A stretch of DNA of 64,000 nt from Alphaproteobacteria bacterium (GTDB taxonomy: Bacteria; Pseudomonadota; Alphaproteobacteria; Rhodobacterales; Rhodobacteraceae), in the NCBI GenBank assembly GCA_029289325.1, contig JARFTV010000006.1, forward strand, positions 21,570 through 85,569, in the 5' to 3' direction. Within the stretch, counting starts at the first letter, position 1. The number at the start of each line of letters is the position of its first letter. Made by a program: the position numbers and the translations under genes. Positions 34,438 to 36,185 of the stretch are shown in pieces. The notes under the pieces are model-generated. The model had not been told where the DNA came from, searched no databases, and saw nothing but the letters and a program-made list of their open reading frames with translations.

Positions 34438-34714
34438 AAACCCCGCCACCCATCCCGCGAACGAGAGGGCCGCGCCCTCCCTCGGGCGGGCGCTTCAACG
34501 GTCGATCTGCGCGCTTTAACCCTCAACCCCACCCCCCGCCGTTGGGGTGAGCACCGTCGCATGAGCGCCCTCCGGGGGGGGTGGGCGGGCGCGGCCCGGC
34601 GGGCTTACGCCCTTGATTCCGGGCCAGAAAGCGTCAGTCATTTCGTGCGCACTTTCGACTTGCCTAGTTCGCGACCTTACCCCACATTTCCGCTTGATCA
34701 GAAATGGTGATAGT

Positions 34715-35206
34715 ATGAACGAAATTCTTGGCAAACTATCGAACTACAATATATTCAATTTCCTCTTTCCCGGGGCAATCTTCTCATTCTTAGCTGATCG
34801 CATGGAGATCTTCTCGCAGCCGGATGATTTCGCGGAAAGACTTATCTGGTACTACTTCGTTGGCATGGCTATCAGCCGAATTGGATCTTTGCTAGTGGAG
34901 CCAGTTCTGAGGTGGCTCTCTTTTGTAAGGTCTGGGGAGTATGAGAAATATCTCCAAGCCGCAGAAGCGGACTCAAAACTCGAATTAATGATAGAAGTCT
35001 CCAATACCTATAGGACAATTGCCACGACCTTTATCGTCCTTCTCTTCTTCGATTTCTACGTGGGTTTGATGTCTAGTTTTGGGTTGAGTCCTCAATGGCA
35101 GTTAAGGATTGCGATTGCGCTCCTCGGCTTGCTATTCCTGGCGGCGCTATCTAAGCAATCAAGTTTTGTGAGCAAGAGAATCAAGCGCTACTCGGAGCGT
35201 ACCTAA
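34715..35206 (+). CDS. Hypothetical multi-TM membrane protein (AT-rich cassette, gene 1)
   Basis: MNEILGKLSNYNIFNFLFPGAIFSFLADRM...; hydrophobic stretches; hand-counted 24/60 G+C at 34741-34800. Confidence 0.8.
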   Translation: MNEILGKLSNYNIFNFLFPGAIFSFLADRMEIFSQPDDFAERLIWYYFVGMAISRIGSLLVEPVLRWLSFVRSGEYEKYLQAAEADSKLELMIEVSNTYRTIATTFIVLLFFDFYVGLMSSFGLSPQWQLRIAIALLGLLFLAALSKQSSFVSKRIKRYSERT

Positions 35207-36108
35207 TGTCCATTATCAAAAGCTTTGCGGTAGGAAACGGCGACCTTTTCTACATTCTTCACGGCAGTCCAAACTTCACAATTATTGACTGCAATCTGAC
35301 TGGCGATCGCGACGACGAAATCTTGGAAGAGCTGAAATATCAATCAGACTCAAAAGAAATTACCCGCTTCATTTCGACGCATCCCGATCAGGATCATTTT
35401 GAAGGCATAGAGAAATTGGACGCCAAGATACCCATTTTGAATTTCTATGTAGTAAAGAATTCTGCAGTAAAAGATCCTGAGACTGATTCCTTTAAACACT
35501 ACTGTGACCTTCGGGATAGCACAAAGGCATTCTATATTCACAAGGGATGCAAGCGAAAGTGGATGAATCAGGGAGATGAAACTCGAAGCGCCTCCGGACT
35601 TTCAATCCTTTGGCCGGATCTTCAGAATCCCTACTTTGTCGCTGAATTGGCAAAGTGTAATGCAGGTGAAGGCTACAACAACGTTTCTGCCGTTATTCGC
35701 TACTCTCTGCAGAATGGGGCAACGGTTATGTGGCTTGGTGATCTGGAGACTCAGTTTATGGAAGATATTGCTGACAGTATTGAACTGGAAAAGACAACAA
35801 TCGTCTTCGCGGCGCACCACGGCCGAGAATCGGGAAAAATTCCAGACTCGTGGCTTCGCAAGCTTGATCCGCAAATCATTGTAATTGGGGAGGCGCCATC
35901 TCGGCACCTAAACTACTATACGGGATATAAGAAGATTACGCAGAACAGCGCAGGTGACATCACTATGGAGCTTGTAAATGATAAAGTACACTTCTACGTT
36001 TCCAATCCAAAATACTACAACAAGGGTCTTACTGATGAGGGCATGACATCGTTCCCGAACTACGTTGGTAGTATTACTGTAGAAACTGAGTATACCTTGG
36101 ATGGGTAA
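35206..36108 (+). CDS. MBL-fold (ComEC/Rec2-like) hydrolase (AT-rich cassette, gene 2)
   Basis: FISTHPDQDHFEG (HxDxDH), VMWLGDLE, IVFAAHHGRESG; TAATG overlap with gene 1. Confidence 0.82.
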   Translation: MSIIKSFAVGNGDLFYILHGSPNFTIIDCNLTGDRDDEILEELKYQSDSKEITRFISTHPDQDHFEGIEKLDAKIPILNFYVVKNSAVKDPETDSFKHYCDLRDSTKAFYIHKGCKRKWMNQGDETRSASGLSILWPDLQNPYFVAELAKCNAGEGYNNVSAVIRYSLQNGATVMWLGDLETQFMEDIADSIELEKTTIVFAAHHGRESGKIPDSWLRKLDPQIIVIGEAPSRHLNYYTGYKKITQNSAGDITMELVNDKVHFYVSNPKYYNKGLTDEGMTSFPNYVGSITVETEYTLDG

Positions 36109-36185
36109 CAAGTTGGTCGACAAATGGAGAAGGAAAGATCACATTCCGATGCCCCGCGTTACTTGAGTACCCATCCCCATCACCC

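What the first reader, a model, noticed from the sequence alone, without database searches (positions are those of the whole stretch)
34640..36180. AT-rich two-gene cassette (membrane protein + ComEC-like MBL hydrolase) inserted between dnaE/parB-like and hisS
Seen: base composition falls sharply (hand counts 24/60 G+C at 34741-34800 and 25/60 at 35341-35400, in an otherwise very GC-rich window) and codon usage changes. Two genes overlap as TAATG, suggesting translational coupling: a ~163-aa multi-TM protein and a 300-aa MBL-fold protein with HPDQDH, GDLE and AAHHG motifs resembling ComEC/Rec2-type MBL domains, but with no ComEC channel fused. Inference: a horizontally acquired membrane-tethered nuclease/phosphodiesterase module, possibly anti-phage or conflict-related. 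I do not recognise it as a named system.
Basis: partly seen in the sequence, partly recalled or inferred. Interest (0 to 1): 0.82.

Follow-up and report, generated by a model that had tools for sequence, protein, structure and literature searches.

The report
Two-gene phage-defence candidate cassette (PDC-M48)
A Tabrizicola-like bacterium carries, in a chromosomal slot where each related species holds a different and often antiviral gene, a foreign two-gene cassette made of a small membrane protein and a DNA-cutting-type enzyme; it matches a catalogued but, as far as I could find, untested phage-defence candidate called PDC-M48.

Summary
In detail: 34715-35206 (163 aa, four helices) and 35206-36108 (300 aa, MBL fold) overlap as TAATG and form a 45% GC island in a 66.7% GC region. 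The claim that it is no named system is wrong: both proteins match PADLOC's phage-defence candidate PDC-M48 (A: 2e-52, B: 5e-146). The enzyme keeps the ComEC nuclease active-site set (HxDxDH, Asn, Asp, His), and its predicted structure matches the ComEC nuclease domain best; the ComEC channel is absent. No congener searched has the pair. In 14 of 14 congeners with both flanks, the same slot between a ParB-like gene and slyX/hisS holds a different AT-rich cargo, including DRT, ShosTA, TIR, PtuA-like and PDC-S06 genes. The slot is therefore a defence hotspot. Across 69 related loci the enzyme is constant and its membrane partner is exchanged: M48A type, other multi-TM proteins, or patatin phospholipases. 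Most likely mechanism: a membrane-docked ComEC-type DNase acting on infection. Rival: the enzyme senses or transduces and the membrane partner kills. No activity has been shown. It is a new member of a known candidate kind in an apparently unreported hotspot.

The parts
34715..35206 (+). M48A: 163-aa membrane protein, four long helices, positively charged C-terminus
   Evidence: PADLOC PDC-M48A 2e-52; AlphaFold2 pLDDT 89.8, pTM 0.82, helices 13-29, 39-67, 88-122, 126-162; invariant K7 Y11 F14 N15 P19 G20 Y47 R55 G57 P63 D86 N97 Y99 R100 in 22 relatives
35206..36108 (+). M48B: 300-aa soluble MBL-fold hydrolase of ComEC type
   Evidence: PADLOC PDC-M48B 5e-146; AlphaFold2 pLDDT 91; best PDB fold match 9ic4, the ComEC MBL domain, E 3.2e-13; invariant H59 D61 D63 H64, N158/N159, D179, H204/H205
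35204..35208 (+). TAATG stop/start overlap of the two genes
   Evidence: sequence; 16 other M48A-type neighbours lie -14 to +47 bp from their enzyme gene
34460..34626 (+). GC-rich left-border element with inverted-repeat ends, ending ...GGGCTTACGCCCTTGATTCCGGGCC; shared with congeners up to the cargo edge
   Evidence: blastn to L105 and L114 ends at 34625/34626; the motif recurs beside other cargos
36185..36262 (+). right-border repeat CTTAACAAACC[CT]CTAAC...TGTCCACCGTGGACA (model R1)
   Evidence: cargo stops at this base in 14 of 15 aligned genomes; genus-wide dispersed repeat
33270..34205 (+). ParB-like gene, left flank of the slot (mechanical start; likely ATG at 33384)
   Evidence: conserved left flank in 14 congeners; family name by recall, not tested
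36262..36456 (-). SlyX-like small gene, right flank of the slot (64 aa)
   Evidence: conserved in the border alignment; family name by recall
36526..37998 (+). hisS, histidyl-tRNA synthetase
   Evidence: 490 aa; 81-97% identical full-length copies in congeners; names

Best explanation
The cassette is a horizontally acquired PDC-M48 phage-defence candidate lodged in a genus-wide, one-cassette-per-genome defence hotspot between a ParB-like gene and slyX/hisS. Most likely mechanism: M48B is a cytosolic, metal-dependent (probably Mn2+) ComEC-type DNase. It is made in step with M48A and docks on the conserved cytosolic face of this four-helix membrane protein. On infection, the membrane-held enzyme cuts DNA, either the incoming phage DNA at the membrane or any DNA once released. 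M48A would supply the localisation and restraint that a trypsin-like protease plus inhibitory insertions supply in HamM-type defence nucleases. Shown by computation: the two genes, their coupling, the family match, the ComEC-type fold and residue set, and the hotspot. Inferred: docking, nuclease activity, infection trigger, protection. My estimates: phage-defence cassette about 0.85; tethered-DNase mechanism given that, about 0.5.
For: PADLOC hits for both genes. Best fold match is the ComEC MBL domain, TM 0.63/0.70; profile matches to solved ComEC chains. Invariant HPDxDH, NN, GD, HHGR across 40 sequences; in ComEC an Asp in motif II and an Asn in motif III replace His, and its domain is a Mn2+-dependent nuclease (PMC8579336). 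HamM, an MBL defence protein compared there with the B. subtilis ComEC nuclease domain, degrades dsDNA, ssDNA and phage DNA once activated (PMC12799240). No congener match. The same slot holds DRT, ShosA/ShosT, PDC-S06, TIR and PtuA-like genes in congeners. Genes next to M48B elsewhere match 254 PADLOC families at 1e-8, including type I, III and IIG restriction, against 8 mostly generic ones for the window's other genes. Close coupling of M48A and M48B genes from Bacteroidota to Campylobacterota.
Against: No activity, substrate or phage phenotype is shown here, and no paper naming PDC-M48 was found. The enzyme is the constant part while the membrane partner changes, in four loci to a patatin phospholipase with no adjacent multi-TM gene; that pattern fits a variable membrane effector as well as a tether. 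Second-best fold matches are phosphorylcholine esterases. Eight of 14 congener cargos have no PADLOC match at all and a ninth only a weak one, so the slot is not shown to be exclusively defence.
Confidence: 0.55

Rival explanations
1. Sensor plus membrane killer: M48B is the constant sensing or transducing enzyme, cleaving a nucleic acid or nucleotide made during infection, and M48A is the exchangeable effector that opens or breaks the membrane (abortive infection).
For: The enzyme is far more conserved (70-77% identity) than the partner (33-53%). Partner type changes repeatedly on the enzyme tree: 19 changes against a minimum of 3. Patatin phospholipase takes the partner place with no adjacent multi-TM gene in L037, L062, L068 and L092. 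Conserved Arg within M48A helix 2. Membrane-pore effectors such as Csx28 are known (PMC12669027).
Against: No pore-like or known effector fold for M48A: no PDB match below E 3. No signal-binding domain is apparent in either protein. Many tree branches are weakly supported.
Confidence: 0.3
2. DNA-uptake accessory: the pair is a minimal competence-like import or degradation module (membrane channel plus ComEC-type nuclease), as proposed in the literature for the Csx27 family.
For: ComEC-type enzyme. Weak Csx27 similarity of M48A residues 6-68 (E 0.0089). A review reports that Csx27-family proteins share predicted operons with transformation genes and may form ssDNA channels (PMC7642515).
Against: Sporadic, horizontally moving cassette in a defence slot, neighbours are restriction and abortive-infection genes. 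M48B looks cytosolic (no signal or TM segment by inspection) whereas the ComEC domain is extracellular. Csx27 membership not established.
Confidence: 0.07
3. M48B hydrolyses a non-DNA phosphodiester, such as a lipid head group or a second messenger, at the membrane.
For: Pce/CbpE phosphorylcholine esterase is the next-best fold match, E 5e-9. Association with patatins.
Against: Motif II Asp and motif III Asn follow ComEC rather than Pce; ComEC is clearly the best match.
Confidence: 0.06

Closest known systems
PDC-M48 (PADLOC-DB 2.0 phage-defence candidate; M48A + M48B)
   Same: Both proteins match full-length with strong E-values; adjacent, same strand, overlapping genes
   Different: No difference found; the candidate itself is, as far as I could find, untested
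ComEC/Rec2 C-terminal MBL nuclease domain
   Same: Fold and active-site set HxDxDH, Asn, Asp, His
   Different: Stand-alone and apparently cytosolic; no channel; NCBIfam ComEC model 13.7 bits against a cut-off of 190
HamM / Avs- and Lamassu-associated MBL nucleases (trypsin-MBL module)
   Same: ComEC-like MBL nuclease in a defence operon (PMC12799240)
   Different: Partner is a membrane protein, not a trypsin-like protease fusion; model shows no disordered segments
Csx27 and Csx28 membrane accessories of type VI-B CRISPR
   Same: Small multi-helix membrane protein in a defence setting; WYL genes near some M48B relatives
   Different: Csx27 similarity only E 0.0089; no Cas13b
6A-MBL anti-phage MBL protein (NCBIfam NF058524)
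   Same: N-terminal 64 residues of the MBL fold match, E 3e-8
   Different: 33 bits against a cut-off of 220

Membership tests
PDC-M48 (PADLOC) | M48A protein model match | tested here: met
   2e-52, residues 1-161 on 1-162/164
PDC-M48 (PADLOC) | M48B protein model match | tested here: met
   5e-146, residues 1-293 on 1-293/296
PDC-M48 (PADLOC) | the two genes adjacent and co-directional | tested here: met
   TAATG overlap
PDC-M48 (PADLOC) | anti-phage activity | not testable with these tools
   no experiment; no paper found
ComEC/Rec2 | ComEC-type MBL active site and fold | tested here: met
ComEC/Rec2 | fused membrane channel and full-length model match | tested here: not met
   300-aa protein without channel; 13.7 bits vs cut-off 190
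trypsin-MBL (HamM-type) module | adjacent trypsin-like protease fused to a defence enzyme | tested here: not met
   flanks are M48A and the right-border repeat/slyX
trypsin-MBL (HamM-type) module | disordered inhibitory insertions over the active site | tested here: inconclusive
   no segment with pLDDT below 50, but coordinates could not be inspected
Csx27 family | four transmembrane helices | tested here: met
   four long helices in the model; hydropathy
Csx27 family | sequence homology to Csx27 | tested here: inconclusive
   E 0.0089 over 63 residues; no true Csx27 recovered for a profile test
6A-MBL | NCBIfam equivalog cut-off | tested here: not met
   33.2 vs 220 bits

The most novel reading that the evidence does not exclude
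A modular defence family in which a constant ComEC-type nuclease is combined with exchangeable membrane-active partners (M48A-type, other multi-TM proteins, or patatin phospholipases), spread in this genus through a precise single-cassette slot whose right edge is a genus-specific repeat that also borders other defence cargos in the chromosome.
Probability: 0.3. Interest if true: 0.75.

Novelty: new member of a known kind. Interest (0 to 1): 0.5.

Why it matters
It gives an untested defence candidate an independent line of support, its place in a slot that holds different, often antiviral, cassettes in related species. It also gives a sharp mechanistic question: does a ComEC-type nuclease do the damage, or does it gate a membrane killer? 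The hotspot supplies a ready list of uncharacterised cargos (for example 846 aa in G016, 359 aa in G005, 480 aa in G007) that may be new defence genes.

Tried and rejected
Housekeeping family: rejected, no congener has it. Integron cassette: no integrase over the family cut-off in 32 genomes, cargo orientation mixed. Right-border repeat as a dedicated attachment site: first looked strong, with 14 of 20 near-exact copies beside AT-rich DNA. But the repeat has up to 112 copies per genome and only 2 of 20 lower-scoring copies border AT-rich DNA, so it is a dispersed repeat that edges hotspots, not a proven att site. Homology of M48A to the ~250-aa multi-TM partners: single-linkage phmmer joined them, but profile comparison gives probability 0.7% and no PADLOC M48A hit; treated as unrelated. 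Csx27 as the parent family: not established. Phage-borne origin: no match in 50,697 phage records; 7 plasmids carry relatives. PDB search for M48A: nothing by sequence or fold. The key Csx27 paper and PADLOC candidate papers were not held.

Full report
1. The observation. The AT-rich pair is real. M48A runs 34715-35206 (163 aa) and M48B 35206-36108 (300 aa), sharing the A of TAATG. GC is 45.5% and 44.3% in a region that is otherwise 66.7% with a minimum of 61.8% over 1.4-kb windows (z about -9), and third-position GC falls from 0.85-0.95 in neighbours to 0.57 and 0.49.

2. Identity. Pfam gives nothing significant, which explains why a reader would not name it. PADLOC gives PDC-M48A 2e-52 and PDC-M48B 5e-146, full length. 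'PDC' means phage-defence candidate; no paper naming PDC-M48 was found. NCBIfam gives only weak matches to 6A-MBL, Avs1a and ComEC, far below their cut-offs.

3. The enzyme. At least 3196 relatives exist. Across 40 sequences down to 46% identity, H59-P-D61-x-D63-H64, N158-N159, G178-D179, H204-H205-G-R and G228-E229-A230 are invariant. This is the ComEC variant of the MBL motif set: published work describes an Asp replacing a motif II His and an Asn replacing the motif III His in ComEC, with Mn2+-dependent nuclease activity (PMC8579336). The AlphaFold2 model (pLDDT 91) matches the ComEC MBL domain 9ic4 best (E 3.2e-13), then phosphorylcholine esterase Pce (E 5e-9) and RNase J. ComEC-like MBL proteins elsewhere in defence (HamM) are proven DNases activated by a partner protease (PMC12799240); no protease accompanies M48B.

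4. The membrane protein. M48A has four long helices (pLDDT 89.8) and no structural relative. By the positive-inside rule both ends and the loop between helices 2 and 3, which carries the invariant D86, N97, Y99 and R100, face the cytosol (inference), a plausible docking surface for the enzyme.

5. The pair elsewhere. In 71 loci from named genomes, covering Pseudomonadota, Bacteroidota, Bacillota, Campylobacterota, Verrucomicrobiota, Nitrospirota, candidate phyla and one archaeon, 69 have usable M48B matches. Seventeen have an M48A-type gene upstream, 16 of them -14 to +47 bp away and one (L083) 1.15 kb away. In all, 50 of 69 have an adjacent same-strand multi-TM gene, upstream or downstream; some of the rest are cut by contig ends. 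The larger partners are not demonstrably related to M48A. Four further loci (L037, L062, L068, L092) have a patatin phospholipase as neighbour and no adjacent multi-TM gene, and L041 has both; patatin is the commonest Pfam family among nearest neighbours (6 of 123), then WYL (4). On the enzyme tree the partner label needs 19 changes (minimum 3), though many branches are weak. The nearest neighbours match 254 PADLOC families at 1e-8, including type I, III and IIG restriction, LmuA-like MBLs and several PDC-S families, against 8, mostly generic ATPase, MotB and HTH types, for 85 other ORFs of this window.

6. The slot. HisS neighbours identify the host as Tabrizicola-like Rhodobacteraceae. Of 149 relatives searched, only this genome has the enzyme, apart from a 52-residue partial hit in another genus. 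In 14 congeners that keep both flanks, dnaE-ParB-like on the left and slyX-hisS on the right, the slot is never empty: it holds 1.8-3.1 kb with a largely AT-rich core, a different cargo in each, in either orientation. Cargos include PDC-S06 (1.7e-134), a DRT reverse transcriptase (1.2e-164), ShosA plus ShosT (7e-96, 1.6e-36), a TIR protein (3.7e-39), and a PtuA-like ATPase (3e-25); one GHKL ATPase has only a weak restriction-type hit and eight cargos have no match. So the slot is a defence hotspot, and the M48 pair is one of its exchangeable cargos.

7. The borders. The right border falls on the same base, CTTAAC of a 78-bp repeat, in 14 of 15 genomes. The left border at 34626 follows a GC-rich element shared with two congeners and found beside other cargos. 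Near-exact copies of the right repeat elsewhere often sit beside AT-rich cargos, including dCTP deaminase, OLD/GajA, PD-T4-6 kinase, PDC-S20, PDC-M55C and a methyltransferase. The repeat is dispersed (up to 112 copies per genome) and its core was not found in genomes of other genera of the family; weaker copies do not show the cargo pattern. I therefore report it as a correlate, not as a proven attachment site.

8. Mechanism. The best-supported reading is a membrane-docked ComEC-type DNase that defends against phage. The chief rival puts the killing in the membrane partner, and the partner-exchange pattern makes that a serious alternative. Sequence data cannot separate them; a joint DNA-loss and depolarisation assay would.

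9. Verdict. The finding is real and the biological guess was good, but the system is already catalogued as a candidate. What is added here is the hotspot, the active-site assignment, and the partner exchange.

Noticed in passing
window 34206-36261; loci L104-L115, L118, L120: Genus-wide one-cassette hotspot between the ParB-like gene and slyX/hisS; all 14 congeners with both flanks carry different, largely AT-rich cargo, several of them known defence genes.
   Followed up: yes
window 36185-36262 (+) and 56176-56253 (-); L122-L163: 78-bp genus-specific dispersed repeat (CTTAACAAACCCCTAAC...TGTCCACCGTGGACA, with changes on both sides of the hairpin stem), up to 112 copies per genome; near-exact copies often border AT-rich cargo (14 of 20), weaker ones rarely (2 of 20).
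   Followed up: partly
window about 56250-56390: A second hotspot with the same repeat, empty in this genome (about 110 bp) but filled in congeners (L122, L123, L125, L126, L131, L133, L141), e.g. by a methyltransferase, a tyrosinase-like protein and a DUF3800-like protein.
   Followed up: partly
window 34460-34626: GC-rich element with inverted-repeat ends whose 25-bp end motif recurs beside cargos at other sites in the genus.
   Followed up: partly
window 33384-34205: Identity of the ParB-like gene to congeners (60-95%) does not follow that of hisS (87-97%), suggesting that it is recombined together with the slot.
   Followed up: no
L049, L050, L052, L069, L085, L098: A second, divergent MBL gene lies next to M48B in several loci, possibly larger multi-MBL systems.
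   Followed up: no
L106:2116-4656 (-), L105:2355-3434 (+), L118:6215-7657 (-), L111:2177-4117 (+): Unannotated hotspot cargos (846, 359 and 480 aa, and a 646-aa GHKL ATPase) with no or only weak family matches; candidate new defence genes.
   Followed up: no
window (one of 85 ORFs in A9): One ORF outside the cassette matches a PADLOC type II nicking endonuclease model at 1.6e-20; the ORF was not identified.
   Followed up: no
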